DNA of 64,000 bases from Synechococcus sp. JA-3-3Ab (GTDB lineage: Bacteria > Cyanobacteriota > Cyanobacteriia > Thermostichales > Thermostichaceae): contig NC_007775.1 in assembly GCF_000013205.1 (NCBI RefSeq), forward strand, positions 930,001 to 994,000, written 5' to 3'. The position numbers and the translations under genes are program-made. A model generated the notes under the pieces. That model was not told the origin of the DNA, did no database searches, and was given only the letters and a program-made list of their open reading frames with translations. Each line of letters opens with the position of its first letter. The stretch's first letter is position 1. Shown one piece after another: positions 5,393 to 23,466 of this stretch.

Positions 5393-5695
5393 ATGCCACG
5401 CATCAAATCTGCCATCAAGCGCGTCAAGATTGCGGAGCGAAATCGCCTGCGCAACAAAGCTACCAAAGCCATGGTGCGCGCGCTGATGAAAAAAGTCACT
5501 TCTCTCTCCTCTGCTTACGCCGCCAACCCCCAACCGGAAACCCTGCAGGAGATTCAAGCGGCGATGAGCGCTGCCTTTAGCCGCATCGACAAAGCGGCCA
5601 AAACAGGGGTTCTCCACAAAAACACAGCCGCCCGTCGGAAGGCGCGTTTGTCTCGGATCGTGCAACGATCCCTGGCCGCCACAAGTGCCTCCTAA
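5393..5695 (+). CDS. rpsT: 30S ribosomal protein S20
   Basis: S20 binds 16S rRNA at the bottom of the small subunit. The 100-residue product is rich in Lys, Arg and Ala, begins MPRIKSAIKRVKIAERNRLR and has the family's long helical hairpin. Length and composition are normal. The start follows a spacer that may contain the promoter (TATGCT near 5357). No strong Shine-Dalgarno sequence precedes the ATG. It is monocistronic and followed by the remnants of a tnpB element. Confidence 0.95.
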   Translation: MPRIKSAIKRVKIAERNRLRNKATKAMVRALMKKVTSLSSAYAANPQPETLQEIQAAMSAAFSRIDKAAKTGVLHKNTAARRKARLSRIVQRSLAATSAS

Positions 5696-5779
5696 GACAG
5701 GGTCTTGGACGGGCAGGGCCCAAAGGTCTCTACTGCTGCCCCGGAAGCAAGCTTGAGCATTTGCTTACCGAGCTTTTGT

Positions 5780-6184
5780 TTGACACTCCCACCCAGGGGA
5801 TTCTTACGCAGCCCAAAATGAACTCGTAAAGGCGCTGTCAAGACGCCCCCAGACAGTCTTTTGAGGCATAACCTCAAAGTTCTGCTTGCTTCGGATCTGT
5901 CTGGTTGCGCCGCTGTTGGTTGACACGCTTCTGGATCCCCCGCCCCCACACCCCCCGTATACGGGGCGATGGACCTACATACCTGCACAGCCAAGTTGCT
6001 GGACAGCCCAAACCGTGCATGGATTTCGCGGTCGCTCAGAGACTGAAGCTGAAGAGCGTTGGTTATCTTCTCTGGCGTGTTTTGGTTGACAGGCCTGGGC
6101 AAAGGCATCCAAAGTTGCATCCAGCTTTGTGGCTTGCGAGGCAGATACCTTGAGCTTGCAGAAGACAGTCAGGACTTGGGTCAT
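5780..6184 (-). pseudogene. Decayed tnpB (IS200/IS605-type) with right end
   Basis: Reading leftward from ATG at 6184, the sequence encodes MTQVLTVFCKLKVSASQ..., the N-terminus of a TnpB-type RNA-guided nuclease. A frameshift near 6070 moves the reading to VNQNTPEKITNALQLQSL and FGLSSNLAVQVCRS. Homology stops near 5955 at a CCGTATACGG palindrome. About 65 bases later begins the right-end block, ending in GGGAGTGTCAA (complement of 5780-5790). The central region with the catalytic RuvC motifs is missing. It is a dead deletion derivative that could only be mobilised in trans. Confidence 0.75.
5951..5966. repeat. GTATAC-centred GC palindrome inside the tnpB remnant
   Basis: CCCCCCGTATACGGGG contains a perfect 14-base palindrome (5953-5966). 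The same core, extended to 18 bases, occurs at 51504-51521 just upstream of another tnpB remnant of a different TnpB family. The palindrome marks the point where tnpB homology breaks off here. Confidence 0.55.
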
Positions 6185-6194
6185 GCAGGTTATA

Positions 6195-6623
6195 TTAGGC
6201 GCTATCCCTCCCCACCGTACAGACGATGGGGAATCCCGCGCGTTTTCTTGAAATAGAACTGACCGCGCGGCCACTGTCGGTGGCGGAAGCAATGCGGGAA
6301 ATCCGGGATCCTGTATCGGCCATGGCCCAGAAGCTGCCGATGCTTTTGGCCGTAGAGGTGCCCAGGGGAGATTCTACTGTCTCAGAGTCGGGGGATTTCT
6401 CCTGGGAAGCGATCAACACCGCCGCTTCCCCACCCTGCCGGGCTACCGCTGGAGTGGAAGGTTCCAGCGTGGGCTGAGAGGCTTCTGCTGGGCAGGTGAA
6501 AGATGACTGCGGCGGCCTCTTGCCAGGGGAGGTTTGTGGGGCCTTGCCTGTCCTGACGGCAGGGGGTACGGGAGGAGCCTTGCCGGCGATCTTTCCCCAT
6601 AAAGCCTGGAGGAGTTGCCACAT
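6195..6623 (-). CDS. Hypothetical protein, uncertain
   Basis: An open frame for 142 residues starting MWQLLQALWGKIAGK. It has an amphipathic N-terminus and then a long Pro/Ser/Ala-rich, probably disordered middle. I do not recognise it. AGGAG lies about 12 bases before the ATG. It is divergent from sulfiredoxin and ends 10 bases before the start of the tnpB remnant, so its C-terminus could have been altered by that insertion. Competing frames exist on the plus strand. Reality of this gene is uncertain. Confidence 0.4.
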   Translation of the reverse strand: MWQLLQALWGKIAGKAPPVPPAVRTGKAPQTSPGKRPPQSSFTCPAEASQPTLEPSTPAVARQGGEAAVLIASQEKSPDSETVESPLGTSTAKSIGSFWAMADTGSRISRIASATDSGRAVSSISRKRAGFPIVCTVGRDSA

Positions 6624-10420: not shown

Positions 10421-11374
10421 ATGTCATTTGAGAATCGTTCTACCACCCCCGAACTGTTGATCCATGTCTTGCGGGAGGGGTTGACCGAATCCATCCATCA
10501 TTGCCAAGCGGTCGTGGCCGATAGCCGCGGGCGATCCCTGGCCATGGCCGGCAAGAGCACCACCCCTGTTTTTGCCCGTTCTGCGCTCAAACCCTTCCAA
10601 GCGCTGGCCATGCTCTCCACCGGCATCCGCGAGCGCTATCGCCTCAGCGAGAAAGACATCGCCATTATGTGCGCCTCCCATCAGGGCACCACGGCCCATG
10701 CGCGGCAGGTGTTCAGCATGCTCTGGCGGGCCGATCTGTCTCCCGATTTGCTGGTCTGCCCCACCCCACCCGGCAAGCCCAGCCCCCTCTGCCACAACTG
10801 CTCCGGCAAACATGCCGGCATGCTCCTGGCCAGCCGCGCTCAGAACTGGACTCTGCAGGACTACGCCCAGCGGCAACACCCCGTCCAGGCCCTGGTGCGG
10901 GCCAAGTTGGCCGACTTGTTGCAAATGCCCTCAGAAGAGTTTTTGTTTGCTCGTGACGACTGTGGCGTGCCCACCTACCAGCTACAACTCAACCACCTGG
11001 CTTCCCTATATGCCCAACTGACCGCCGGCGAGCGGCCGGACTTGGAGGCCATCGCCCGCGCCATGACCCACCACCCCGAAATGGTGGCTGGTGAGGGATG
11101 TTTCGACACCGAATTGATGCGGGCCACCCAGGGAGAGTTGGTCAGCAAGTCCGGCGCCGAAGGGATCCAGTGCATCGGGCGCGTCGGAGAGGGGATGGGC
11201 CTGGCCATCAAGGTACAAGACGGGGCCGCGCGGGCCAAATATGCCCTGGCCCTGCACCTGCTGCAGCGCATGGGCTGGATCCAACCGGCTGCCGCCGAGA
11301 TGCTGGGGGAACGCTTCCTCGCCGTCGGCCCCTACACCCGCCTGGAGGTGGAAGGGGAGCTGCGCATGCCTTGA
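10421..11374 (+). CDS. Asparaginase (rhizobial/thermolabile type, PF06089)
   Basis: Predicted to hydrolyse L-asparagine to aspartate and ammonia. The 317-residue protein shows HVLREGLTESIHHCQAVV, the ARSALKPFQALAML motif, CASHQGTTAHA, HNCSGKHAGML and DDCGVPTYQL, which belong to the Rhizobium etli AnsA-like family and not to the E. coli type. It is cytosolic without a signal peptide. It is divergent from cbiX with a 142-base shared promoter region and is followed after 72 bases by the BrxD-like operon on the same strand. Nitrogen metabolism is the likely context. Confidence 0.87.
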   Translation: MSFENRSTTPELLIHVLREGLTESIHHCQAVVADSRGRSLAMAGKSTTPVFARSALKPFQALAMLSTGIRERYRLSEKDIAIMCASHQGTTAHARQVFSMLWRADLSPDLLVCPTPPGKPSPLCHNCSGKHAGMLLASRAQNWTLQDYAQRQHPVQALVRAKLADLLQMPSEEFLFARDDCGVPTYQLQLNHLASLYAQLTAGERPDLEAIARAMTHHPEMVAGEGCFDTELMRATQGELVSKSGAEGIQCIGRVGEGMGLAIKVQDGAARAKYALALHLLQRMGWIQPAAAEMLGERFLAVGPYTRLEVEGELRMP

Positions 11375-11446
11375 GCAACCCAACGGGGGCTGAGTCTTGC
11401 ATCTCATTCCCTGGCAGTGTTACTTTGTCGAAAAACTGGAAGAGCA

Positions 11447-11581
11447 ATGATTGAGGAGGCTTTCAAAGCTCTCGACGGCGAGCTGGCCAGCTTGGTTGAG
11501 CTAACTAAGAAAGTGACGAAAGCGGTAGGCAGCGCTTAAGCTGCTAGCAGAAGGGGAGATCTCCAAGCAGTAAACCGCCAG
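11447..11581 (+). pseudogene. Probable severed 5' end of the first gene of the BrxD-like operon
   Basis: ATG at 11447, preceded by GGAAGAG, opens a frame for 30 residues (MIEEAFKALDGELASLVELT...) and stops at TAA (11537-11539). After the stop the same frame continues without further stops into the 11582 gene. The encoded helix fits the coiled-coil start of that protein. The likely ancestral gene thus ran from 11447 to 12214 (255 residues) and acquired a nonsense codon, or translation restarts downstream. Confidence 0.5.
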
Positions 11582-12214
11582 GTGGAAAGCTGCGGCTCTG
11601 CCTTGAACACAGCTCTCTCCCAAGCGGAGCTGGTGAGGCGAGCTCTTGAACAAGCCCAGCAAGTTTTGTCCACCCCCTCCCTCGAAGACCTGGCCCGCGA
11701 AGTGGGGGAACGGGTAGGCCAGCCCTGGCTTCCTACCGAGAATCCCAACATTTTTGTGGCCTTTCCTGTCTCAGTGCACTTTGCCAGAGAGCGGATACGT
11801 ATTGACCGCAAGATTTTCCGATCCCAGCGGCCCAGTGCTATTGCTGAAGCAATCAAGCGAGCAAGAGGCGGCAAGAGCAAAGAGACTGATCCCCAGGCTG
11901 TCCTTCAGCTCATTTGGAAGGCGGCAAGAATTGCGGCAGGCTACCTGAGAAAGTGTGTGGAGCAGCTACCTAACTCCATAAGCGTAGCTGCGCGAGATGT
12001 CTTTGAGGTTCTCCACCTCAATAACTCAGACTACACAGAAGTAGAATTTACCCGACATCTTTACCTTCTAGATCGAAGCCCAATCAACAATGTGGATGGC
12101 TATCGCTTGATCTTCTCTGCATCTACAGGCACTCGCTCAGGTCGCTGCTATCGCATTCGCGATGAACGCGGTGAGGAACATATTTACTATCTTTTGGAGT
12201 TTGAGCGTCTATGA
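11582..12214 (+). CDS. Unknown protein, first gene of the BrxD-like operon (probably N-terminally truncated)
   Basis: A soluble protein of 210 residues from a GTG start with no good Shine-Dalgarno. Residues 1-45 are helical (ALNTALSQAELVRRALEQAQ). The middle is basic and charged (ARERIRIDRKIFRSQRPSA, KRARGGKSKE). The C-terminal half is mixed alpha/beta, ending YRIRDERGEEHIYYLLEFE. I recognise no domain. Its TGA overlaps the ATG of the next gene in ATGA, so it is translationally coupled. An in-frame stop separates it from an upstream stretch with a better start at 11447. GC content is visibly lower than in neighbouring genes, suggesting transfer. Confidence 0.7.
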   Translation: MESCGSALNTALSQAELVRRALEQAQQVLSTPSLEDLAREVGERVGQPWLPTENPNIFVAFPVSVHFARERIRIDRKIFRSQRPSAIAEAIKRARGGKSKETDPQAVLQLIWKAARIAAGYLRKCVEQLPNSISVAARDVFEVLHLNNSDYTEVEFTRHLYLLDRSPINNVDGYRLIFSASTGTRSGRCYRIRDERGEEHIYYLLEFERL

Positions 12215-13161
12215 GTGGGGAAACCCATAGTTGTCTACAGCTTGATTTATGGCTGCGTTGTCTTGAGAAAGACTACCTGAGATCCTTCATACCTGAGGGC
12301 GGTGCAACCGTCAAGCTAGCTGTCGTCCCAAGAGATTCCTACTCCCGCCTCTACAAATCTCTTCGGGAAAAGCTATCCCCTCCTTCTTTTCAGCTTTTTG
12401 ATCTAACCAAAGAGTGCATCAATCTACATTCAATTGAGAATTTTTGGTTTGCCCTTGCTCAGAGGGTAGACTGGGAATCTTTTGCCAGAGAACTGCGCTA
12501 TAGCATTCTCAAAAAAGTTGGATATCCCCTCAGCTCAGAACCTCAGGACTGTACTTTAGAGGAACTGGCAGAGTTTTACCAAGTCGAGGCCCGCGAGATT
12601 AACATACAGTTCCAGCGAGAAATCAAGAGGCTGATTTTTCAGGACTACTCTCTGGCTCTCGACTTTCGCAAGGCTATTTCCCGTCTTATCTACGAGCCTC
12701 TCCAAAGTCCAGGCACTCTAGAAGGTTTGTGCCTTGCGGTTCAGGAGTGGCTCAAAGGCACGCTGAAATCTATTAGTCAAGTGCGTGGAGCAGCTATTTT
12801 TCGAAGGATTGATAGGACAAACTCCAGAGAGATCCTACTTTCTTTTCTGAGACTTTTTACACGCCAGTTCGGTTCTACGGCAATCCTTGTCAGTCTGTTT
12901 CATTACTACGAGCGAAGAGAAAGTGGACGTCCAATCTTTACCCGTAGGCAAATCATCGATCTCTATGAAACCTTGCGAGAGTTTATCGATGCAGAGAGTA
13001 AGCTTGAGAAAACAGCCATAATCTTCATGGCCCCTCCAGAGTTCATTGAATCAGAACTTTTGTCCTACCATAAGTACCGAGCCTTGCAAACTCGAATCCA
13101 GAACGAGGTATATTCCTCCAAGTATCCCAATCCTTGTACAACTATGGTTCAACTTCAATGA
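12211..13161 (+). CDS. BrxD-related protein lacking recognisable P-loop motifs
   Basis: A protein of 316 residues, all helical in appearance, without signal peptide or membrane segment. I see no Walker A motif. The C-terminal third resembles the second half of BREX BrxD/DUF2791 ATPases: a hydrophobic strand TAILVSLFHYYERRE where a Walker B would sit, then FTRRQIIDLYETLREFIDA, KTAIIFMAPPEFIE and YRALQTRIQNE. The Walker B acids are absent. It starts in an ATGA overlap with the previous gene and ends in one with the next. I infer a catalytically dead partner of the ATPase encoded next. This is tentative, since the similarity is by eye. Confidence 0.75.
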   Translation: MSGETHSCLQLDLWLRCLEKDYLRSFIPEGGATVKLAVVPRDSYSRLYKSLREKLSPPSFQLFDLTKECINLHSIENFWFALAQRVDWESFARELRYSILKKVGYPLSSEPQDCTLEELAEFYQVEAREINIQFQREIKRLIFQDYSLALDFRKAISRLIYEPLQSPGTLEGLCLAVQEWLKGTLKSISQVRGAAIFRRIDRTNSREILLSFLRLFTRQFGSTAILVSLFHYYERRESGRPIFTRRQIIDLYETLREFIDAESKLEKTAIIFMAPPEFIESELLSYHKYRALQTRIQNEVYSSKYPNPCTTMVQLQ

Positions 13162-14390
13162 GCGCATCACTTGTAGCCCGACGAGCGATTGAAGCGCTGC
13201 GAAACGGTGTTCCCAATCCATTTGCAGTTGCAGAACTTGGCTCCTGGCAACAAGAGGTCGAAGAGAAGTTTTGGGAATTATGCAACGCCCCCAGCTTAGA
13301 GCCTGGGGGGATGCTCGTGAAGGGGGACTTCGGAACTGGTAAGTCTCATCTTCTACTAACTCTGCAGGAAAAAGCAAAGAAGCAGGGTTTTGCCACCTCG
13401 CTGGTTGTCATCTCTAAAGAGCTGCCTCTTGGCAATCCTAGTCGCCTAATTCCCCGCATTCTTGCCGAAATCGAACTCCCTGACATGGCTGAGCGCGGGC
13501 TTCAAGGCATTGCAGCTCGTCTGCAGTACAAACAGCCTTCTTTCCAGGAGTTCCAGCTTTCGGTTAACCAATGGCGATTTGGAGAGGGCTGGTGGCCGGC
13601 TACTCTAGCTTTACACCAAAGGCTAGAGGGTGACGACGAGAAGTTAGACGCTATTGTCCGCTTTTGGGCTGGTGAACCTACCTTGAGGCTGTCAGAGGTG
13701 CGGCAGAGACTTCGGGATCACGGCCTGGCAGGGGCTTACTCCGTCAGCAAGCTACCTCCTGCGGAAAGTCTGCACTGGCAGCGCCTGGCTTTCTCTGCTC
13801 AGCTATGTCGGGCCATAGGGCTCAGGGGCTTGGTGGTTTTGGTGGATGAGATCGAGCTGATTGCACAGTACAGCATCCTGCAGCGGGTCAAGTCCTACCG
13901 CGTTCTTGGCCACTTGTTTGGCAAGGAAACTTTACCTGAAGAACTAAAAGCAGCTCCGCTAATTCTAGCGGGAGCAGTAACCCGCGACTTTGAGCAGTCT
14001 ATCTTGCAGGAAAAAGGGGATCGGGAGAAGGCACCTGAGATGGCGCGCCAGAAGCATATTTCTGAAGAAGCTGTAAAAGCGGGGATGGAGGCCATTCAGC
14101 AAGCTATCCCCCTCCGTTCCTGTTCGGAAGCTCAGGAGGCCATTCAAGCGATGTTGCACAAGGTGGCGGATCTCTACCAGAAGGCCTACCCTGATTGGGT
14201 ACGGCCATCACGGTCTGAGCTCCCTCCTCTTTACGGCACAACTACCGTGCGGTCAATTATTCGCCGTTGGATTACTGAGTGGGATGTGCGCCGGTACTAC
14301 AACCCCACTGGTACAGTTCAGATTGAGGAAGACAAAGCGACTGGACACACCCCTACGGAAGAGATCCAAGAACTGGAAGAGGAAGCTTAA
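13158..14390 (+). CDS. BREX-system BrxD-like (DUF2791) P-loop ATPase
   Basis: A 410-residue ATPase. The N-terminus ARRAIEALRNGVPN is the hallmark of the BrxC/BrxD (DUF2791) family. Walker A is GDFGTGKSH (residues 56-64) and Walker B is LVVLVDEIELI, with Asp230 and Glu231. Later GAVTRDFEQSILQEKGD and a basic region with TTTVRSIIRRWITEWD follow, then an acidic tail. Families like this act in type 2 BREX and TerB-linked loci. ATG at 13158 overlaps the previous stop (ATGA); a TTG eight codons upstream is possible. No methylase, PglZ, helicase or other BREX core gene is adjacent, so this is not a standard BREX locus. Confidence 0.85.
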   Translation: MSASLVARRAIEALRNGVPNPFAVAELGSWQQEVEEKFWELCNAPSLEPGGMLVKGDFGTGKSHLLLTLQEKAKKQGFATSLVVISKELPLGNPSRLIPRILAEIELPDMAERGLQGIAARLQYKQPSFQEFQLSVNQWRFGEGWWPATLALHQRLEGDDEKLDAIVRFWAGEPTLRLSEVRQRLRDHGLAGAYSVSKLPPAESLHWQRLAFSAQLCRAIGLRGLVVLVDEIELIAQYSILQRVKSYRVLGHLFGKETLPEELKAAPLILAGAVTRDFEQSILQEKGDREKAPEMARQKHISEEAVKAGMEAIQQAIPLRSCSEAQEAIQAMLHKVADLYQKAYPDWVRPSRSELPPLYGTTTVRSIIRRWITEWDVRRYYNPTGTVQIEEDKATGHTPTEEIQELEEEA

Positions 14391-14701
14391 GCAAGCCTAG
14401 GTGCTCCTCAAAGTTTTCTGAGTTTAGCTTAATCGGCGGGAAGCCCCGCACTGTATGGGTGAATTGTGTTGACTCAAGAGCCAATCAGTGTCGGGATGAA
14501 AGCCGTTCGTGCTTCAGTTGAAGAGATTGAGTTAAATCTCTGGAGAGCTTCCCTGACTGGTTTCCGCCGTGGGTTGCACGGTGGCAGCATGCTGAGACAA
14601 GTCAGTGAAGCGTGAAGCCGGTACGCTATCGGTTCGCGCAGCGTGGCGTCACCCATGTTTGAGGGTCGGGAGTCATCCCCCACCTAGTTTGCAGGAACTG
14701 C
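14391..14701. other. Spacer after the BrxD-like operon, possible transposon remnant
   Basis: These 311 bases hold no convincing gene. The stretch near 14437-14455 (GGGAAGCCCCGCACTGTAT) resembles the 3' end of the tnpB at 52498-52514 (GGGAAGCCCGCACTCTATG), where TnpB ends and the right-end hairpin begins. That suggests a degraded IS605-type end. Several small inverted repeats follow, for example GAGATTGAGTTAAATCTC at 14523-14540. They may be a terminator or RNA structure. Confidence 0.35.
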
Positions 14702-15376
14702 TCAACGCTGAAAGGGATTTTGGTAGGGGTTGGGGTTCTGGCCCTTGTTGCGGTACTTGGGATTGATGGTCAAGGTGCCGGATCCCAGGCCCCGCTGCGC
14801 CAGAAACTCCAGGTTGCGGCGGCGCATGGTGGTGTCGTAGTCGTTCTTGACGCGATCTTCCAGGATGGCCACCTGCTGCAACGCGCTCAGCAAAATGGCA
14901 GCCGCCTGTTCGGAGGTGTAGCCATTTTGGGAGGCGTAGCGCACGGCAAACTCGTCGGCTGCCACCTGGGCCTTCTGGCCTTTCTCTGCTTTGCGCAAAA
15001 GAAACACCGCCGACGCCGCCAAGCCGGCTGCCAAGCCCACGCCCAGGTTATCCCCCATCTGCAACTCCACCAAAATGCCCATGCTGCCGGCCCCGATCAG
15101 CGCGGGATACAGCAACAGGGCCGACCAGTTATCCCCCAAGGCCAGCTCGGTGGCCATCACCGCTTCCCGCAAAAAGTAGATCTTTTGTTGGTCAGGGCTC
15201 AGCTTCTGCCAGCGGCTGAGGTCAATGGCGAAGCGGGTGTACTTCTGCCAGGGGAAGCGCCAGAGCGGCTGCACAACCCGAGATTGGTCAGGGGTGCCGA
15301 TCTCGATCTGCACCTCGGGGCGGATCTCCACCGGGAGAAACTGGATCAGGCGATCGAACTCAGAGATAGTGTACAT
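14702..15376 (-). CDS. DUF3318-like protein
   Basis: A protein of 224 residues. The start MYTISEFDRLIQFLPVEIRP, the PLWRFPWQKYTRFAIDLSRW and QQKIYFLREAVM motifs, and a hydrophobic pair of helices (about 90-130, ALLLYPALIGAGSMGILV and GLAAGLAASAVFLLRK) resemble the cyanobacteria-specific DUF3318 family. It looks membrane-associated. The C-terminus is Asn/Pro-rich (NPNPYQNPFQR). The frame stays open upstream, but family sequence begins at the ATG at 15376. Function unknown. It lies downstream of yajQ on the same strand with a 175-base gap. Confidence 0.7.
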   Translation of the reverse strand: MYTISEFDRLIQFLPVEIRPEVQIEIGTPDQSRVVQPLWRFPWQKYTRFAIDLSRWQKLSPDQQKIYFLREAVMATELALGDNWSALLLYPALIGAGSMGILVELQMGDNLGVGLAAGLAASAVFLLRKAEKGQKAQVAADEFAVRYASQNGYTSEQAAAILLSALQQVAILEDRVKNDYDTTMRRRNLEFLAQRGLGSGTLTINPKYRNKGQNPNPYQNPFQR

Positions 15377-15551
15377 ACTGGCACGGCAGAGTCGCGGCTG
15401 GAGATGGAGATCATCCCCATAGTAAGGGATCCTAGCTTTTTCTGCAGACTGGTTCCAAGAGAGGCTGTGGCGATGGGATGGCGAGAGCCGGGATCGCTCT
15501 GCACCAATCCTTATCATCAACCAGGGATCCCCCCGACTTTGTATCGGCTCT

Positions 15552-16043
15552 CTATCGGTAATTGACAAATTGGAGCGCCACCGGGTAATCCTGCTGCTTG
15601 AGCATTTGAATGACCGCCTGCAGCTCATCTTTGTCTTTGCCGGAAACCCGCACCAGATCCCCTTGAATGGAGGGCTGCACTTTTTTGAAGTTGTCGCGGA
15701 TTTGTTTGGCAATCTGCTTGGCCAGCGCCGCATCGATGCCCTTTTTCAGCCGAACCACCTGGCGCACCCGGTTGCCGCCGGCACTCTCCGGAGGTTGAAA
15801 GTCGAAGATCTTTAGGGAGAGGCCCCGCTTGGCCGCCTTGGTGAGGAGGAGATCGCGAATGGAGTTGAGAGCCATCTCGCTGGCGGTGGTGATGATCAGG
15901 GATCCCTCCTCCAGCTCGATTTCTGTCTGAGTATCCTTGAGGTCATAGCGCTGTTTGATCTCCCGCCGGGCTTGATCCACGGCATTCACCAGTTCCTGCC
16001 GGTCGAAGTCGCTGACGATATCGAATGAGTAGGTAGAGGCCAT
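15552..16043 (-). CDS. yajQ: YajQ-family nucleotide-binding protein
   Basis: A small cytosolic protein of 163 residues with two ferredoxin-like halves. It begins [20 protein letters not shown] and contains [13 protein letters not shown] and [20 protein letters not shown], signature segments of the YajQ/DUF520 family. Members bind nucleic acids or nucleotides, and in Xanthomonas cyclic di-GMP. Length matches the family. ATG at 16043 is the conserved start; upstream codons in the same frame are not family-like. It is divergent from the SDR gene with a 118-base spacer. Confidence 0.92.
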
Positions 16044-16161
16044 AAACTGTATCTTCGCTACCGCTCCGTATCTTAAGCCCTCAGGCCAAGCAGGGATCCC
16101 CAACCCCCAAAGAAGCTACAACAGGTAAAGGGATCCCAGTCCAGATTTGCGGAGAAGCAGG

Positions 16162-17004
16162 ATGGCCGATGTTGTTTTAATTACAGGCGCTTCCGAAGGC
16201 ATCGGCAGGGCCACGGCCTTTACCTTTGCCCGTGGCGGCTACCGCTTGGCGCTGGCTGCCCGTACCGCCGAAACCCTGAGACAAACCGCCATCGAGCTGG
16301 AGCAAAGCCTAAACGCCGAGGTCTTGGCCGTTCCCACCGATGTCACGCAGCCAGAACAGGTGCAAAACCTGGTGGAGAGAACCCTAGAACGCTATGGCCG
16401 CATCGATTGCCTGATCAACAACGCCGGCATCTGCCTGAAGGGCCCTTTTTTGCAAACCACCCTGGAACACTGGCAGGCGCTGATGGCGGTCAATTTTTGG
16501 GGCTACCTGTACACCATCCGGGCCGTGCTCCCCGATATGCTGAAGCGCAAAAAAGGTCAGATCATCAACGTGGGATCGGTCGGCGGCAAGATGCCCCTGC
16601 CCCAAATGAGCGCCTATTGTGCCAGCAAGTACGCGGTCAGTGGGCTGACGGAGGCGCTGCGGCTGGAACTGCAACCCCACGGGATCCAGGTGATCGGCGT
16701 CCATCCGGGCATTGTCAGCAGCAATTTTCTCAAGCGAGCCATTTTTTTGGATGAGGGGGGGCCGGAGTCCTCTCCCGATGGCCAATCGCAAGCCTCAGGT
16801 GGGAAAGCCCGCGAGCAAATGCAACAGGCGCTGGAGAGTTTTTGGGCCAGCCGGCCAGAAGAAGTGGCCGCAGCCATTTGGGACGCCGCTCGCCAGTCCA
16901 AGTCGGAGGTGGTGGTGGGCATGGCCCAATGGGCAGTAGGAGCCTATGCCCTTTTCCCAGAGCTGGTGGGCCCGCTGCTGCAAAGGGCCGCTGGCCGACC
17001 TTGA
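16162..17004 (+). CDS. Short-chain dehydrogenase/reductase (SDR)
   Basis: A classical SDR of 280 residues that would oxidise or reduce a small substrate with NAD(P). The N-terminal Rossmann motif is LITGASEGIGRAT, followed by CLINNAGI. The catalytic set shows Ser in NVGSVGGKM and YCASK (Tyr-x-x-x-Lys). The C-terminus has a hydrophobic stretch. ATG at 16162 is preceded by GGAGAAGCAG. Substrate cannot be inferred. It is followed after 112 bases by the FHA gene. Confidence 0.9.
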   Translation: MADVVLITGASEGIGRATAFTFARGGYRLALAARTAETLRQTAIELEQSLNAEVLAVPTDVTQPEQVQNLVERTLERYGRIDCLINNAGICLKGPFLQTTLEHWQALMAVNFWGYLYTIRAVLPDMLKRKKGQIINVGSVGGKMPLPQMSAYCASKYAVSGLTEALRLELQPHGIQVIGVHPGIVSSNFLKRAIFLDEGGPESSPDGQSQASGGKAREQMQQALESFWASRPEEVAAAIWDAARQSKSEVVVGMAQWAVGAYALFPELVGPLLQRAAGRP

Positions 17005-17116
17005 GATTTGGCAGGTCATCTTAGGCGATTCTGCAGCTCTGCCAATTCTGGAGTCGAGCTTCTATTCTATAGTATGGTGCTAAGGTTAGATTCGGGCAGT
17101 TGCAGCGGAAGGGATT

Positions 17117-17479
17117 ATGGTTGATTCTGCGCCTTCTCCTCCGAGTGCTCAGCAGCACATCTTGGTCGTGGAGGATCGAGATGGCCGCCGCAGCCAGGTG
17201 CTGACCTCTGCGAAATACTTCATTGGTCGCGACCTGGCCAACGACATCTGCCTTAACTCCCAGTACGCCTCCCGCTACCACGCCATGCTGCTGCGCGTTC
17301 CTGCTGAGAAGGAGGGAGAGTACTACTACCGCATTCTCGATGGCGATCTGGAGGGTAGGCCCAGCACCAACGGCCTGCTGATCAACGGCCAGAAAATTTC
17401 TACCCACCAACTTAAGTCGGGGGATGTCATCAGCTTTGGTCCGGACGCCAAGGCCACCTACATCGTCAAGACCTCCTAG
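17117..17479 (+). CDS. FHA domain-containing protein
   Basis: A 120-residue protein that is almost entirely one FHA domain, a phosphothreonine-peptide-binding fold. Visible core motifs are YFIGRDLANDICLN, YASRYHAMLL (the S-R-x-H element) and STNGLLINGQK. The N-terminus (about 1-12) is a short disordered leader. It implies signalling by Ser/Thr kinases, but none is adjacent. Its stop codon overlaps the stop region of the convergent flippase gene by four bases. Confidence 0.92.
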   Translation: MVDSAPSPPSAQQHILVVEDRDGRRSQVLTSAKYFIGRDLANDICLNSQYASRYHAMLLRVPAEKEGEYYYRILDGDLEGRPSTNGLLINGQKISTHQLKSGDVISFGPDAKATYIVKTS

Positions 17480-18738
17480 TTCGAGCTGGGTTGGCCTCCC
17501 TCTGGAAAGCGCAATTGCTGTCGAATTAGCAGCAGCAAGGCCAGCACCAGCGCCACTTCTGAGAGCAAGGTGGCCGAAGCCGCCCCTCGCCAACCCCACC
17601 TCGGGATCCAAACCGCATTCAAAAGCCCGTTGAGCCCCAGAGCCAGCAGTTGCAGGCGGCTGCGGGGCTTTTGCAACCCTGACCCGGTGAGCAGGTGAGA
17701 CAGCAGCAGGTGGATCCCCTCCAGCAAGATCACCGGGCTAAGCCAGCGCAGGATGAGGGCCGTCTCTTGGTAAGCCGACCCCAGCACCCAAGGGATCCCG
17801 TAAGAGCCCAATGCCACCCCCAAGGCGGCCAAACTGCCGTAGCCCGCCACCCAAGGGGAAAGGTGCCAGGCGTAGCGGCAGCCCTGCGGCAGGCTTTTCT
17901 GTCCTTGGCGGCACAGCTCGGCAAAGTGGCTGGTGAGCAGAGCGATCATCGGCGTTTGCGAAAAGTTGATCACCCGGTAGGCAGCGCTGTAGAGCCCCCC
18001 CGCTGCTGCCGAGGCCAGGCGGGGCAAAAGCAGCTTGTCCAGGTCGGTGAAGGTTTTGGCCGCCGCCAGCCCCACGGCAAAGTCCCAGCCCGCCACCAGC
18101 CGTTCCCCCAGATCTCTCCAGGCCAGGGGGGGAGAAGGCTTGCTCCACCGCCCCATCCCCCGCGCCATCAGCAGCAGCACCGCCAGCACCATCAGCCCGT
18201 AGAGAATGGCCCATTGGGTTAGGGATCCCCAGCCCAAGGCCACCGCCAGCAGCACAGCCCCCAATCGCCCCAGCGCCATGCCGGTGTCGATGAGGGCCAC
18301 GCCGGCAACTTGCTCTTGCCCAATCAGGATCCCTCGGTACACCTCAGGAATGGCGATAAACAGCAGGTCGCTGGCCAGCAGGATCCCTACCAGCAGGGGA
18401 GAAGTCTCCGCCAGCCAGAGGCTCAGGAGGGGCGCCAACAGCAGCGCCATCCCGCCGCAGCCCAGTCCGGCCAGCCACAGGCTGGGACTGATCTCCGGGG
18501 CAGCCGCGGCAGATCTCCGGTTGCTTAGGCGCTGGATCAGCAATTCCGATTGGCCCCAGTAGCCAAAGGGGGCAGCTAGGTTGCTGCAGGCCAAAATCGC
18601 GGAGAACACTCCAAAAGCTTCCGGCCCCAACAGCCGCGCCAGCAGGATGAAATAGGCCCCGGACAACCCCAGGCGCAGGCCATTGCCCACCATCAGCCAG
18701 GCAGCCTGGCGTAGCCGTTGTTGTTCTGCTCTATCCAC
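17476..18738 (-). CDS. Polysaccharide flippase (Wzx/MATE-like, MOP superfamily)
   Basis: An integral membrane protein of about 420 residues with 12-14 hydrophobic segments. The N-terminal WLMVGNGLRLGLSGAYFILL and LLGPEAFGVFSAIL are typical of lipid-linked oligosaccharide flippases, which move glycolipids across the inner membrane for surface polysaccharides. I prefer GTG at 18738 because AGGAG lies eight bases upstream. An ATG at 18816 would add 26 residues but has its GAGGAG directly abutting. No glycosyltransferases are adjacent, so the polymer is unknown. Divergent from PBP2. Confidence 0.85.
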   Translation of the reverse strand: MDRAEQQRLRQAAWLMVGNGLRLGLSGAYFILLARLLGPEAFGVFSAILACSNLAAPFGYWGQSELLIQRLSNRRSAAAAPEISPSLWLAGLGCGGMALLLAPLLSLWLAETSPLLVGILLASDLLFIAIPEVYRGILIGQEQVAGVALIDTGMALGRLGAVLLAVALGWGSLTQWAILYGLMVLAVLLLMARGMGRWSKPSPPLAWRDLGERLVAGWDFAVGLAAAKTFTDLDKLLLPRLASAAAGGLYSAAYRVINFSQTPMIALLTSHFAELCRQGQKSLPQGCRYAWHLSPWVAGYGSLAALGVALGSYGIPWVLGSAYQETALILRWLSPVILLEGIHLLLSHLLTGSGLQKPRSRLQLLALGLNGLLNAVWIPRWGWRGAASATLLSEVALVLALLLLIRQQLRFPEGGQPSSN

Positions 18739-18863
18739 GCTGCCACTCCTGGACGAGGCTTGCCAGAGCCAGGGATACTGGATGGATGCTGAGAGGGCCC
18801 GTCCAAGAGCGGGCATCTCCTCTTGATTTTGGGTGTATCGGTTGCAATTCTTCTGGCAAGTTC

Positions 18864-20765
18864 ATGGCCAAACTCTACCCCGTCAGCAACGCCGCGCGAA
18901 GCCCCCACACCTTGGCAGGACGGGATCCAAAAGCCCTGTTCTCCCCCCATTCCAGACCGCCTGCCCCCCGCCGGGTGCTTCCCCCACCCCCGCCGGACGG
19001 CGGTAGCCCTCGTTGGCTGGGATCCGCATCGGCCAAAACGGTGGGGCAGGGCTATCGGGCCGTTGTCTTGCTTTTGCTGACCAGTCTGCTGCTGTTTGGA
19101 GGGCTGGGATCCCGCCTGGCCTACCTGCAACTGGTGCGCACCCAGTATTACCGCCAGTTGGCCGATACCAACCGCATTCGTCTCTTGCCCCAGCCGCCGG
19201 AACGGGGGCGCATTGTGGATCGCAACGGCGTGTTGTTGGCGGGCAGCCAGCTCTCCCACTCGGTCTTCCTGTGGCCGCTGGTGCAATCGCGGCAGGGCTG
19301 GCAGGAGACGATCCCCAAGCTGGCCCGGTCCTTGAACATGGCTCCCGAAGAGATTGCCCAAAAACTGGAGCAGGCGGGCTATCGCTCCCCGTTTCCGGTG
19401 CGCATCCTGCGCAACGCCAGCCCCCAGGTGGTCACTCAACTGGAAGAGATGAGCCGCGAGCTGCCGGGGGTGATGGTGGAGGCAGAGACGGTGCGGTTTT
19501 ATCCCCACGGCGACTTGGCCGCTCATCTGCTGGGCTATACCGGCGAGATCCCCCTAGAGCAACTGCGGGCGGATCCCAGCTATCGCCTGGGGGATATCGT
19601 CGGCCTGATGGGCGTGGAGGAATTGTTCGAGAGCCATCTGCGCGGCCAATGGGGCGGGCGCCAGGTGGAGGTAGACGCCATGGGAGAAGTGCTGCGGGTG
19701 CTGGGAGAGCAAGCGCCTCGACCGGGCAACACCCTGCAGCTGACTTTGGATGTACGCCTGCAGCAGGCAGCGGAGCAGGCCCTGGGCCAGCAGAAAGGAG
19801 CAGTGGTCGCCATGGATCCCCGCGACGGCTCGATCCTGGCCATGGCCAGCTATCCCACCTTTGATCCCAACCTCTTTTCCAGCCGCATCACCCAAGCCCA
19901 GTGGGAGAGCCTGCAACAGCGGGACTTCCCCTTCCTCAACCGCGCCCTGCGGCCCTATCCCCCCGCCAGCACCTACAAAATCGTCACCACCGCCGCCGGG
20001 ATCGAGTCGGGAGCCTTTCCCCCGGATACGGTGCTGCAGACCGGCCCCTACATCCAGGTGGGCGGGTGGAGGTTCTGGGACTGGAACCGGGCCGGTTTCG
20101 GGCGGCTGAACTACCGCCAGGCGATGGCCTACAGCAGCGACACCTTCTTCTACCAAATTGCCCTGGGCACCAAGGCCGCCCCCCTGCAAGAATGGTCGCG
20201 CCGCTTCGGGCTGGGGCAATTGACCGGGATCGGCCTCAAAGGGGAAGCTGCTGGGCTGGTGCCCGACGCCGAGTGGAAACAGCGCCACTGGCGCGAGCCC
20301 TGGTACGTGGGCGATACGGTCAACATGTCCATCGGCCAGGGATTTATCACCGCCACGCCGCTGCAGATGGCGGTGGTAACAGCAGCGGTGGCCAACGGCG
20401 GCTGGCGGGTTCGCCCCTTGCTCTCGCAGCAGGTGATCCCGGAAAGCCCCGTGCCCCTGCGGCAGAAGGTGGGTCTTTCCCCCGCCACGCTGGAGATCCT
20501 GCAGCAGGGGTTGCGGGATGTGGTGGTCTACGGCACCGGCGGCAACGCCAACCTGGGGCCGGGCTTTCCCCCCACCGCCGGCAAAACCGGCACCGCCGAG
20601 GATCCGCCGCGGCGCTCCCACGCCTGGTTTGTCGGCTATGCCCCCTACGACCGGCCCGAATTGGTAGTCGTGGTCTTTCTGGAAAACAGTGGCGGCGGGG
20701 GTGGATCCCGGGCCGCCCCGATCTTCCGCGAGGTGATGCGGGCCTACTTCCAACGTGACTCGTGA
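18864..20765 (+). CDS. mrdA: Penicillin-binding protein 2 (class B PBP, elongasome transpeptidase)
   Basis: Cross-links peptidoglycan during lateral growth, working with RodA/MreB. In 633 residues: a Pro-rich cytoplasmic tail, one membrane anchor (about 70-90), a dimerisation domain with RGRIVDRNGVLLA, then the transpeptidase domain. The active-site motifs are STYK (Ser about 369), SSD (about 422, in the SxN position, with Asp in place of Asn as in many PBP2) and KTGT (about 574). ATG at 18864 gives MAKLYPVSNAA; the frame remains open upstream. Not clustered with other shape genes. Confidence 0.93.
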   Translation: MAKLYPVSNAARSPHTLAGRDPKALFSPHSRPPAPRRVLPPPPPDGGSPRWLGSASAKTVGQGYRAVVLLLLTSLLLFGGLGSRLAYLQLVRTQYYRQLADTNRIRLLPQPPERGRIVDRNGVLLAGSQLSHSVFLWPLVQSRQGWQETIPKLARSLNMAPEEIAQKLEQAGYRSPFPVRILRNASPQVVTQLEEMSRELPGVMVEAETVRFYPHGDLAAHLLGYTGEIPLEQLRADPSYRLGDIVGLMGVEELFESHLRGQWGGRQVEVDAMGEVLRVLGEQAPRPGNTLQLTLDVRLQQAAEQALGQQKGAVVAMDPRDGSILAMASYPTFDPNLFSSRITQAQWESLQQRDFPFLNRALRPYPPASTYKIVTTAAGIESGAFPPDTVLQTGPYIQVGGWRFWDWNRAGFGRLNYRQAMAYSSDTFFYQIALGTKAAPLQEWSRRFGLGQLTGIGLKGEAAGLVPDAEWKQRHWREPWYVGDTVNMSIGQGFITATPLQMAVVTAAVANGGWRVRPLLSQQVIPESPVPLRQKVGLSPATLEILQQGLRDVVVYGTGGNANLGPGFPPTAGKTGTAEDPPRRSHAWFVGYAPYDRPELVVVVFLENSGGGGGSRAAPIFREVMRAYFQRDS

Positions 20766-21097
20766 GGCCCTGGGCGCGACTTGCCCCGGCATTCGAGGGG
20801 AGTGGATATTAGGATTATCGGTTGATCTCTCTTTGTTCCCAAAAAATTCCACTCAGCCCCCCTAAAATCCCTTCTCCAACCGGCTTCTGCCCTAACTTGG
20901 CTGTAGAATATGTCAGTGATTTGGAGCCAAACTGCCACAATCCTGCCATTCGCGCCAGCGGCGCCTTGGCGCAGTGCAGGGCAAGCCCCGCTCCTAAAAA
21001 CTGAGAACACTCTGGGCCGTGGTTGCTTCGCAGCACCTCGCAAGTACGCGGCCAGAGTCTGTTTTAACCCTATTGCCTAACTCACGAGGAGATCAGG
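20766..21097. promoter_or_regulatory. Spacer between PBP2 and HU genes
   Basis: These 332 bases contain no credible gene; open frames on both strands are short and unlike known proteins. The region must hold the hup promoter, and GAGGAGATCAGG directly before the hup ATG is a strong ribosome binding site, fitting a highly expressed protein. I recognise no riboswitch or clear terminator. Confidence 0.45.
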
Positions 21098-21415
21098 ATG
21101 AACAAGGCAGAGCTTGTGGATGCCGTCGCTCATCGCGCCAACGTAACCAAAAAAGAAGCTGAAGCTGTCCTGACGGCGGCGCTGGAGATCATTGTCGAAG
21201 AGGTCGCATCCCGCGATGAAAACGGTGAACCCAAAGGAAAGGTGACCCTGGTGGGCTTCGGCTCCTTTGAGGCCCGCAAGCGCAAACAACGGGAAGGTCG
21301 CAACCCGAAGACCAACGAGAAGATGGTGATCCCAGCCAGCATTGTCCCGACTTTCACTGCAGGCAAAACTTTCCGCGATGCGGTGGCAGGTGGCCACAAG
21401 TCTTCGGGAGTTTGA
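21098..21415 (+). CDS. hup: HU-family nucleoid DNA-binding protein
   Basis: A histone-like protein that bends and compacts DNA as a dimer. The 105-residue product starts MNKAELVDAVAHRANVTKKE and has VTLVGFGSFEARKRKQREGR, the beta-arm with RNPKTNEKMVIPAS, and FTAGKTFRDAV, all HU hallmarks. The C-terminus extends by about 12 residues beyond the minimal family end. A strong Shine-Dalgarno precedes it. The downstream aminotransferase frame overlaps its 3' end. Confidence 0.96.
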   Translation: MNKAELVDAVAHRANVTKKEAEAVLTAALEIIVEEVASRDENGEPKGKVTLVGFGSFEARKRKQREGRNPKTNEKMVIPASIVPTFTAGKTFRDAVAGGHKSSGV

Positions 21416-22631
21416 CGGGATCCCAGCCGTTCGCGCTCCTCAGGCGGAGTTCTCTCAGCGAACCTGGGCTTTGGGATGGACAGGCGTGCAACGGCCTCAG
21501 CATGGTGGCAATCGCGCTTGGGGGGCAGCCATTGCCGGCTGCCCTGCCGAGGCTATTTTGGATTTTTCGGCCAGCCTCAACCCCCTGGGTCCGCCGCAGT
21601 CGGTTTTGCAAGCTCTGGCTCGGGCCCTGTCGGCGTCGGATCCAGTTGCGATTAGCCGCTATCCGGATCCCGACTACCGCGAGCTGCGGGCCTGTTTGGC
21701 GCAGCGCTGGGCGGTCGATCCGGAGTGGATCTTCGTGGGCAACGGGGCGGCGGAATTGCTCACCTGGGCGGCCCGCGATGCCCAGGGACGGGAGGTTTGG
21801 CTGCCCCGGCCGGCTTTTGGGGACTATGAGCGGGCCCTGCGGGCGGCGGGTGTAACCCTCAGGGGTTTGGATCTTTTGCCCTCTCAGGGATCCCCCCCCT
21901 TGGCCTTGCTGCAGAAAGAGATCCGGGCGGACAAGACAGGCCGGGTGCTCTGGCTAAACAATCCTCACAACCCGACGGGCCGGCTTTTCCTCCGGCAAGA
22001 CATCTTGCCCCTTCTGCCCCAGTTCGAGCAGGTGGTGGTGGATGAGGCTTTTATGGACTTTTTGCCAGGAGACGCCCCGCAGGAGCTGCCCCCTCTGGAT
22101 GCCAGCTCAGAGGTGGGAGAGCTGCCCCGCAGCCAGACTTTGATCCCTCACCTGGAGGCCCACCCCAACACCATCGTCATCCGTTCGCTGACCAAGTTCT
22201 TTACCTTGCCCGGCTTGCGCATCGGCTTTGCTGTGGGGCATCCGGATCACTGGCGGCGCTGGCGGCAGTGGCGGGATCCCTGGAGCGTCAACGGATTGGC
22301 GGCGGTGGCGGCGGCGGCGGCTCTGGCAGATGAAGACTTTCGCCGGCGCACCCTGGCCTGGCTGCCTACGGCGCGGGAGCATTTGCTGAGAGGTCTACAG
22401 GGGCTACCCGGCTGGGATCCCTGGCCCGGCCAAGCCAACTTTGTGCTGGTGCGCTGCCCTGGCTCCGCTACGCAGATTCAAGAAAAGCTGTTGCGGCAGC
22501 ACCGCATCCTGGTGCGGGATTGCCTGAGCTTTCCAGAGCTGGGGGATCGCTATCTGCGCATTGGCCTAAGAACCCTGCCGGAGCAGGAGCAGTTGCTATC
22601 GGCCTGTCGAGAGATCTTGGAAAATAGCTAG
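21378..22631 (+). CDS. PLP-dependent aminotransferase, threonine-phosphate decarboxylase (CobD) type
   Basis: A fold-type I PLP enzyme of about 417 residues. The HGGN motif, ILDFSASLNPLGPP, RYPDPDYRELR, NNPHNPTGRLF and the PLP-lysine motif RSLTKFFTLPGLRIGF point to the CobC/CobD group that makes aminopropanol phosphate for cobalamin, or a histidinol-phosphate aminotransferase relative. The ATG at 21378 overlaps hup by 38 bases. The family-conserved part begins only near HGGN, so a later GTG (about 21486) could be the true start. A link to the cobA branch of corrin synthesis is plausible. Confidence 0.82.
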   Translation: MRWQVATSLREFDGIPAVRAPQAEFSQRTWALGWTGVQRPQHGGNRAWGAAIAGCPAEAILDFSASLNPLGPPQSVLQALARALSASDPVAISRYPDPDYRELRACLAQRWAVDPEWIFVGNGAAELLTWAARDAQGREVWLPRPAFGDYERALRAAGVTLRGLDLLPSQGSPPLALLQKEIRADKTGRVLWLNNPHNPTGRLFLRQDILPLLPQFEQVVVDEAFMDFLPGDAPQELPPLDASSEVGELPRSQTLIPHLEAHPNTIVIRSLTKFFTLPGLRIGFAVGHPDHWRRWRQWRDPWSVNGLAAVAAAAALADEDFRRRTLAWLPTAREHLLRGLQGLPGWDPWPGQANFVLVRCPGSATQIQEKLLRQHRILVRDCLSFPELGDRYLRIGLRTLPEQEQLLSACREILENS

Positions 22632-22657
22632 AGAGCTTCTTTCTGGCGAGAGGGATT

Positions 22658-23323
22658 ATGGTTGAGGTGGTGACTCCCCTTTGGCGGGAGTGCGAGGCCT
22701 CTATCGTGAAGGGGGTGGCCCACCACAGCGATCTGGAACTGCTGCGAGCCTTTCAACGGCAGCCGCAGGCGGCGCGCTACTTCATCGCCCTGTTTTGCCG
22801 CTACTGCGCCTGGGTGGATGGGATCCTGGCCGAGCATCTGCCCCCGGAGCAGCGGGCTGCTTGGCGAGAGGAGGTTTGGCTGCGCCTGTATGCGCGCCTT
22901 CAGCATCTCGATGTCCGCACGCTCCAGAGCGAGGGGGGCGGGGATCCGGTGCTGGCACCCTGGCTGGCGGCGCAAATCCGCGAGCTGATCTGGCCTTTTG
23001 CGGGGCGGTCTGACGGCGCTGCTGAGGGTGAGGCTGCCCCTCCTCAAACTGCGAGCGCTGGTGCAGCGAAGCCCCCTCTTTCGCCGGCATTGGCCTGTTA
23101 CCTGAGCGCGGCTCTGGACAACTTGCCGGGAGATATGCGCTTTATTCTGCTGCTACGGGATCGGTTTGGTTGGTCGCCGGAGCGCATCGCTGCCCAGCTC
23201 AAAGCTGACAGGTACTACCTCGCCCCAGAGGAGGTGGATGCCATTGTTGCCTCCGCTCGCCAGCTCCTGCTTCAGCATCTGCCGGCAGATGTGCGCGCCC
23301 TCTATCTTGCGGCCAATCCCTAG
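22658..23323 (+). CDS. Sigma-70/ECF-like domain protein, function uncertain
   Basis: A 221-residue soluble protein. The N-terminal half (ELLRAFQRQPQAARYFIALF, AAWREEVWLRLYARLQ) resembles sigma region 2. A poorly conserved linker (GAAEGEAAPPQTASAGAA) follows. The C-terminal part with LPGDMRFILLLRDRFGWSPE and RIAAQLKAD resembles a region 4 helix-turn-helix. This is the layout of ECF-type sigma factors or their cyanobacterial derivatives, but the match is loose. It follows the aminotransferase after 26 bases on the same strand and may share its transcript. No anti-sigma gene is obvious. Confidence 0.7.
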   Translation: MVEVVTPLWRECEASIVKGVAHHSDLELLRAFQRQPQAARYFIALFCRYCAWVDGILAEHLPPEQRAAWREEVWLRLYARLQHLDVRTLQSEGGGDPVLAPWLAAQIRELIWPFAGRSDGAAEGEAAPPQTASAGAAKPPLSPALACYLSAALDNLPGDMRFILLLRDRFGWSPERIAAQLKADRYYLAPEEVDAIVASARQLLLQHLPADVRALYLAANP

Positions 23324-23466
23324 AAGAAGGCCTTCGGCTTGTGGCATGGTAGTGATGGCTTGCCTTTGTCCCTGGGGTTGGCTCTGTGGTTAAGCGGTTC
23401 TCGGGTTCAGCACCGGATCGGTTCTGCTGGCTTCCTAGCTCTTAGTCTAGCGAGGGTGAGTTGCCT

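What the first reader, a model, noticed from the sequence alone, without database searches (positions are those of the whole stretch)
11447..14390. Three-gene operon around a BrxD-like ATPase with a probable P-loop-less partner: candidate defence or DNA-maintenance system
Seen: three genes joined by two ATGA overlaps (12211-12214 and 13158-13161). The third has clear Walker A (GDFGTGKSH) and Walker B (LVVLVDEIE) motifs with the ARRAIEALRNGVPN start. The second resembles the same family's C-terminal part but lacks the Walker B acids and a Walker A. The first is unknown. GC is lower than in the flanks. Known: BrxD/DUF2791 ATPases occur in type 2 BREX and TerB-linked loci, with helicases and methylases that are missing here. 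Inferred: an ATPase/pseudo-ATPase pair plus a small protein forms a compact module, perhaps acting on DNA.
Basis: partly seen in the sequence, partly recalled or inferred. Interest (0 to 1): 0.8.

Follow-up and report, generated by a model that had tools for sequence, protein, structure and literature searches.

The report
Twin AAA+ module with dead subunit
A three-gene operon in a hot-spring cyanobacterium encodes a working and a catalytically dead version of the same kind of DNA-handling ATPase plus a small partner, and it belongs to a little-studied family of such operons that jumps between bacterial phyla and in one case sits beside a known anti-virus system.

Summary
The operon is real: two ATGA overlaps, a Walker A/B ATPase (gene 3) and a P-loop-less partner (gene 2). 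One correction: the 11447 frame of gene 1 has an in-frame TAA at 11537-11539, so the open frame starts at GTG 11582. The near relative G004 has the same trio with an uninterrupted gene 1. The same g1-g2-g3 order recurs in cyanobacteria (17/390 sampled genomes), Bacillota and Coprothermobacterota. All 24 full-length relatives of gene 2 outside this lineage carry a Walker A motif. Only this genome and G004 lack both Walker motifs, yet gene 2 is under purifying selection (dN/dS 0.10), keeps a putative arginine finger, and is modelled as an AAA+ protein closest to RdrA, BrxC and ORC. A helicase-bearing version (g1-g2-g3 plus a BrxHI/SngC-like helicase) lies 173 bp after PglZ-BrxD-BrxHI genes (BREX type 2) on an Aulosira plasmid. 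All five Bacillota loci with enough upstream DNA have a divergent SNF2 helicase. Four congeners lack the trio at this site. Best reading: a divergent BrxD-type AAA+ module, probably antiviral, positioning a helicase supplied in trans, with gene 3 active and gene 2 as dead partner. Defence and mechanism are inferred. It is neither BREX nor Shango.

The parts
11447..11539 (+). former 5' part of gene 1, ended by an in-frame TAA (11537-11539)
   Evidence: Same frame as gene 1 and alignable with the uninterrupted gene 1 of G004.
11582..12214 (+). gene 1 (g1), 210 aa from GTG; small partner protein. Family model: N-terminal helical hairpin, alpha+beta middle, C-terminal winged-helix-like end
   Evidence: Profile A3 finds the family in 17 of 390 cyanobacterial genomes; family model pLDDT 87.3; weak ORC5 winged-helix match, Z 6.3; no Pfam/PADLOC family.
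12211..13161 (+). gene 2 (g2), 316 aa, catalytically dead AAA+ subunit of the BrxC/BrxD class
   Evidence: Alignments A1/A6, motif table, model pLDDT 76.9 pTM 0.80, VIA-align Z 9.4 RdrA, 8.9 BrxC, 8.3 ORC2, dN/dS 0.103.
12325..12348 (+). degenerate P-loop of g2 (V39-R46, VPRDSYSR in place of G..GxGKTH)
12871..12900 (+). lost Walker B of g2 (GSTAILVSLF in place of GLVVAIDDLE)
13093..13095 (+). Arg295 of g2 (ALQTR), putative arginine finger, kept in every g2 compared
   Evidence: Invariant and kept; role inferred from the ORC 'SRLG' position (own knowledge).
13158..14390 (+). gene 3 (g3), 410 aa, active-looking BrxD/SngB-type AAA+ ATPase
   Evidence: Pfam BrxC_BrxD 1.4e-14, PADLOC BrxD 1.1e-11, NCBIfam BrxD 1.4e-11 but below cut-off, dN/dS 0.141.
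13323..13349 (+). Walker A of g3 (GDFGTGKSH)
13830..13856 (+). Walker B of g3 (LVVLVDEIE)
11375..14701 (.). segment present here (3.1 kb version in G004) but missing in G001, G002, G003 and G005, where the two flanking genes are direct neighbours
14391..14701 (.). non-coding segment downstream of g3; only a short gap is there in G004
10421..11374 (+). left flank, asparaginase-like gene (96% identical in G004, dN/dS 0.033)
   Evidence: name from own reading of the sequence
14702..15382 (-). right flank, conserved cyanobacterial protein (97% identical in G004, dN/dS 0.025)

Best explanation
The operon is a divergent, helicase-less member of a horizontally moving three-gene module: a small adaptor (g1) and two related ORC/Cdc6-like AAA+ proteins (g2, g3) of the BrxC/BrxD/SngB class. 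Shown: conserved gene order, translational overlaps, intact ATPase motifs in g2 and g3 elsewhere, loss of both motifs in g2 of this lineage only, purifying selection on all three genes, gain or loss as a block. Inferred mechanism: g3 binds and hydrolyses ATP; g2 has become a structural partner that lends its arginine finger to the g3 site, in the way BrxC works with the inactive AAA+ protein BrxB in BREX; g1 joins the complex and may contact DNA through its winged-helix-like end; the assembly closes on DNA (probably invading DNA) and loads or regulates an SF2 helicase. The helicase is encoded alongside in other versions (a BrxHI/SngC-like helicase, or SNF2, with or without a recognisable SWIM domain) and would have to come from elsewhere in this genome. 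Most likely role: antiviral defence.
For: Same trio and order in 16 cyanobacterial loci and in Bacillota and Coprothermobacterota. Walker motifs. g2 fold. Putative arginine finger. Selection. Missing from the site in congeners. Quartet with BrxHI/SngC-like helicase (PADLOC BrxHI 8.8e-99, SngC 5e-82). Quartet 173 bp after PglZ-BrxD-BrxHI on an Aulosira conjugative plasmid (PglZ E=0, BrxD 2.1e-166, BrxHI 6.5e-280). Quartet on a Desulfomonile plasmid near AbiE. SNF2 divergent neighbour in 5 of 5 testable Bacillota loci. Precedents: BrxD-BrxHI dyad proposed as helicase loader (PMC12839542); BrxC with the inactivated AAA+ BrxB (PMC13326643).
Against: No defence gene lies next to this copy; no phage-resistance test exists. 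Several trio-only loci sit in the same chromosomal place within a genus (Gloeomargaritales, Phormidesmis), which looks stable rather than mobile. SNF2 with DUF3670 is absent from six trio-bearing cyanobacteria, this one included, so no single helicase is an obligate partner. The g1 winged helix is only Z 6.3. In-frame stop in g1. The tree places this lineage on very long branches.
Confidence: 0.5

Rival explanations
1. A DNA-maintenance module (replication, repair or chromosome organisation), not defence: an ORC-like AAA+ pair that serves a housekeeping helicase.
For: ORC-like fold matches; stable chromosomal position within Gloeomargaritales and Phormidesmis; SNF2 neighbours in Bacillota; no defence island here.
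Against: Patchy presence (17 of 390 genomes), clean absence in four congeners, presence on plasmids and beside BREX type 2 genes, cross-phylum distribution, higher divergence than the flanks.
Confidence: 0.25
2. A decaying remnant: the operon was once a working module and is now being lost in this lineage.
For: In-frame TAA in g1, both ATPase motifs gone from g2, no helicase next door, broken copies in other genomes (L043 in pieces, L045 cut by a transposase).
Against: dN/dS 0.10-0.14 for all three genes between this genome and G004, lowest for g2; g2 motif loss is shared with G004, so it predates their split, yet the frame and ATGA overlaps are intact in both; g1 remains open over 210 codons.
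Confidence: 0.2
3. A TnsC/RdrA-like AAA+ regulator of another kind, for example a transposition target selector or a RADAR-like filament or ring.
For: RdrA Z 9.4 and TnsC Z 8.7 are among the top matches of the g2 model, tied with BrxC.
Against: No adenosine deaminase (RdrB) or transposase partner recognised as a recurrent neighbour in the intact loci read; sequence profiles point to BrxC/BrxD.
Confidence: 0.04

Closest known systems
BREX type 2 BrxD-BrxHI pair
   Same: g2 and g3 belong to the BrxC_BrxD family; the quartet helicase matches BrxHI over its whole length; the quartet follows PglZ-BrxD-BrxHI genes on one plasmid.
   Different: Two AAA+ genes instead of one, an extra g1, no PglX, PglZ, BrxC or PglW of its own; here no helicase and a dead g2.
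Shango (SngA-SngB-SngC)
   Same: BrxD-like ATPase plus, in the quartet, an SngC-like DEAD/DEAH helicase.
   Different: No TerB-like SngA found (g1 has no Pfam TerB match), a second ATPase, no helicase in the window operon.
BrxC with BrxB of type 1 BREX
   Same: An active AAA+ protein paired with an inactivated AAA+ partner (PMC13326643).
   Different: g2 is a lineage-specific loss from an active paralogue, not BrxB; no PglZ partner.
Origin recognition complex / Cdc6
   Same: AAA+ fold class, mixed active and inactive subunits, helicase loading as the proposed job.
   Different: Similarity only at fold level.

Membership tests
BrxC_BrxD (PF10923) | Profile match above Pfam's cut-off | tested here: met
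   g3 54.3 bits against 22.2; g2 of the window 18.0 (below); g2 of three relatives 74-179 bits.
BrxD equivalog (NF033438) | NCBIfam cut-off of 350 bits | tested here: not met
   g3 44.2 bits.
BREX type 2 | PglZ, PglX, BrxC/PglY, PglW, BrxD and BrxHI in one locus | tested here: not met
   The trio stands between two unrelated genes; a BrxHI-like query finds only weak helicase hits in this genome.
Shango | SngA (TerB-like), SngB, SngC helicase | tested here: not met
   No Pfam TerB match in g1; no SngC-like helicase next to the trio.
AAA+ fold for g2 | AAA+ core of the ORC/BrxC type | tested here: met
   The top 20 structural matches are AAA+/P-loop ATPases: RdrA Z 9.4 over 206 residues, BrxC Z 8.9 over 204, ORC2 Z 8.3 over 166; near full-length alignment with active homologues.
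Active AAA+ ATPase, g2 | Walker A lysine and Walker B acids | tested here: not met
   Lost here and in G004; Walker A kept in all other full-length g2.
Winged-helix DNA binder, g1 | Winged-helix fold | tested here: inconclusive
   Helix and strand order fits; ORC5 match Z 6.3 over 83 residues only.
Anti-phage defence system | Reduces phage infection | not testable with these tools
   Only genomic context available.

The most novel reading that the evidence does not exclude
A new, so far unnamed antiviral module built on a heteromeric pair of ORC-like AAA+ proteins plus an adaptor, which plugs into different helicases (BrxHI-type, SNF2, or one in trans), and which in hot-spring Synechococcus has evolved a one-active, one-dead AAA+ pair comparable to BrxC-BrxB.
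Probability: 0.35. Interest if true: 0.75.

Novelty: new variant of a known kind. Interest (0 to 1): 0.55.

Why it matters
BrxD and SngB are central but poorly understood parts of BREX type 2 and Shango. A stand-alone module with two such ATPases, several interchangeable helicase neighbours and one lineage where evolution has removed one active site gives a direct way to ask what these ATPases do: load a helicase, sense DNA, or both. The helicase-bearing version beside BREX type 2 genes suggests that BREX can be extended by add-on AAA+/helicase units.

Tried and rejected
Searching viral contigs with g3 alone and with the family alignment found no relative, and phage records gave none, so no phage carriage was seen. 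The obligate-partner idea for SNF2 was tested with PF12419 (SNF2 helicases with DUF3670) and rejected for cyanobacteria. BrxHI-like helicases elsewhere in G251, G096 and G172 (L091-L093) turned out to stand alone without ATPase genes of this family. The 1685-aa helicase of this genome (L097) was checked as a possible partner; it belongs to a separate ARMADA/DISARM-like locus. The segment 14391-14701 has no Rfam hit and no second copy. Promoter and terminator scans gave nothing above chance. Paper searches found no description of the trio, but only an open-licence library was searched. A wider Bacillota sample could not be drawn. The g1 fold search gave no confident match over the whole chain.

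Full report
What is in the sequence. Three genes run left to right between an asparaginase-like gene (ending 11374) and a convergent conserved cyanobacterial gene (stop at 14702-14704). g1 overlaps g2, and g2 overlaps g3, by ATGA. [quoted passage not shown] g2 (316 aa) matches the same family only below it; g1 matches nothing. The low GC is real. The part after it is open from GTG 11582. The near relative G004 has an uninterrupted g1.

A conserved module. Searching relatives and then 390 genomes of the class found g1 in 17 genomes of 12 genera. In the 16 loci with a convincing g1 match the order is g1-g2-g3 on one strand, although three are interrupted or broken: L013 by a transposase gene between g1 and g2, L045 by a transposase gene within g3, and L043 in pieces. 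A scan of the collection of 84,980 species genomes with the g3 family added further cyanobacteria and, outside them, Sporomusa, other Bacillota and Coprothermobacterota, again with the same order where the contig is long enough. Proteins from Bacillota and Coprothermobacterota are 44-56% identical to the cyanobacterial query, and in the tree the Coprothermobacterota g2 fall among the cyanobacterial ones, though that fork is weakly supported. This suggests transfer between phyla.

g2 is a dead AAA+ subunit here only. In all 24 other full-length g2 proteins the P-loop is present, and a Walker B motif was found in 22 of them by pattern (L075 and L077 read QIDDLE in the alignment); g3 keeps both throughout (L013 g3 has A in place of the first G, and L046 g3 escaped the pattern for Walker A but matches BrxD over that stretch). 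Window and G004 g2 lack both. They share the loss, so it predates their split. g2 still evolves under purifying selection (dN/dS 0.103; g1 0.139, g3 0.141; flanks 0.025-0.033), and the whole operon has about twice the synonymous divergence of its flanks (dS 1.0-1.4 against 0.56-0.59), which hints at exchange or separate gain in the two lineages. AlphaFold2 models g2 at mean pLDDT 76.9, pTM 0.80; the best structural matches are RdrA, BrxC, TnsC and ORC (Z 8.3-9.4). Z values near 8-9 are modest, but they agree with the sequence alignment to active homologues. Among the few residues of g2 kept in every sequence is Arg295, which sits after the sensor-1 strand where ORC proteins carry their arginine finger (own knowledge). 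A dead subunit that keeps its arginine finger is what one expects of a partner that completes the neighbour's ATP site. In type 1 BREX, BrxC likewise interacts with the inactivated AAA+ domain of BrxB (PMC13326643).

g1. The family model (pLDDT 87.3) has a long helical hairpin, an alpha+beta middle part and a helix-helix-helix-strand end. The end resembles the ORC5 winged helix only weakly (Z 6.3), so DNA binding by g1 is a guess.

Helicases are the recurrent neighbours. In two cyanobacterial genomes (L013, L046) a fourth gene follows, matching BrxHI at 1.2e-92 and 8.8e-99 and SngC at 3.3e-78 and 5e-82. The same quartet is on a Desulfomonile tiedjei plasmid, with an AbiE-type toxin-antitoxin pair 3 kb away, and on a conjugative plasmid of Aulosira laxa, where it begins 173 bp after PglZ, BrxD and BrxHI genes of a BREX type 2 system (the two large upstream genes were not profiled). 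In all five Bacillota loci with enough upstream sequence (L073, L076, L079, L080, L082) a divergent SNF2 helicase stands next to g1; a SWIM zinc finger was recognised with it in two, as a separate gene in L073 and fused in L076. In cyanobacteria SNF2 proteins with DUF3670 do not track the trio. The window copy has no helicase beside it, and a quartet helicase query finds only weak hits in its genome. BrxD with BrxHI has been proposed to act as a helicase loader (PMC12839542).

Gain and loss. In G001, G002, G003 and G005 the two flanking genes are direct neighbours, in G003 four bases apart (sequence). The trio therefore came or went as a block. Copies in other genomes are cut by transposases or broken (L013, L045, L043). 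Nearby genes in some loci are of defence type: HsdM (L045), an AAA_15 plus DUF3226 pair (L013), a TIR protein (L042), and a VapE-like mobile-element gene lies near L068. But within Gloeomargaritales and Phormidesmis the trio keeps one chromosomal place, so it is not always mobile.

Tree. g2 and g3 of the window and G004 each form the sister branch of the trio-only g2 and g3 (100/99 and 99/98), on long branches; long branches make the exact place unsure. They are best described as a third subtype: helicase-less with dead g2.

Verdict. The trio is a divergent member of a widespread but, in the sources searched here, unnamed BrxD-type AAA+ module. Membership in BREX type 2 and in Shango was tested and not met. 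How it works is inferred: g3 as motor, g2 as structural arginine-finger partner, g1 as adaptor, acting on DNA together with a helicase in trans. Defence is the more likely role for the family (about 0.6), less certain for this copy because of the stop in g1.

Noticed in passing
window 14391-14701: About 310 bp of non-coding DNA between g3 and the right flank, nearly absent in G004, single copy in the genome, no Rfam match.
   Followed up: partly
window about 5692-6292, minus strand: Looks like a decayed TnpB fragment; G004 has a 419-aa open TnpB-like gene near the same place (L009:13168-14427).
   Followed up: no
L097 (same genome, 325001-340000), 3539-14967: An ARMADA type I/DISARM-like locus: a DruE-like YprA-family helicase, a DrmMI-like methylase and a BrxHII/DrmD/DpdE-like helicase part, in this genome but outside the window (ARMADA described in PMC12458937).
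   Followed up: partly
L095/L096 (AP018310.1, about 12393-24287): BREX type 2 genes PglZ, BrxD and BrxHI followed at 173 bp by g1-g2-g3-helicase on a conjugative plasmid: a possible add-on unit of BREX.
   Followed up: partly
L013:11968-13134: A transposase-like gene (looks ISL3-type) lies between g1 and g2; an AAA_15 plus DUF3226 gene pair (PARIS-like?) stands downstream.
   Followed up: partly
L045:5949-13803: g3 is split by a DDE transposase gene, with an HsdM gene and a second HsdM-like gene next door.
   Followed up: partly
L042:6405-7718: A TIR domain fused to an FGE-sulfatase domain lies upstream of the trio; a very similar gene is upstream in L044 and L069.
   Followed up: partly
L043:6653-9935: g2 and g3 are each split into two frames: pseudogenes or assembly errors.
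   Followed up: no
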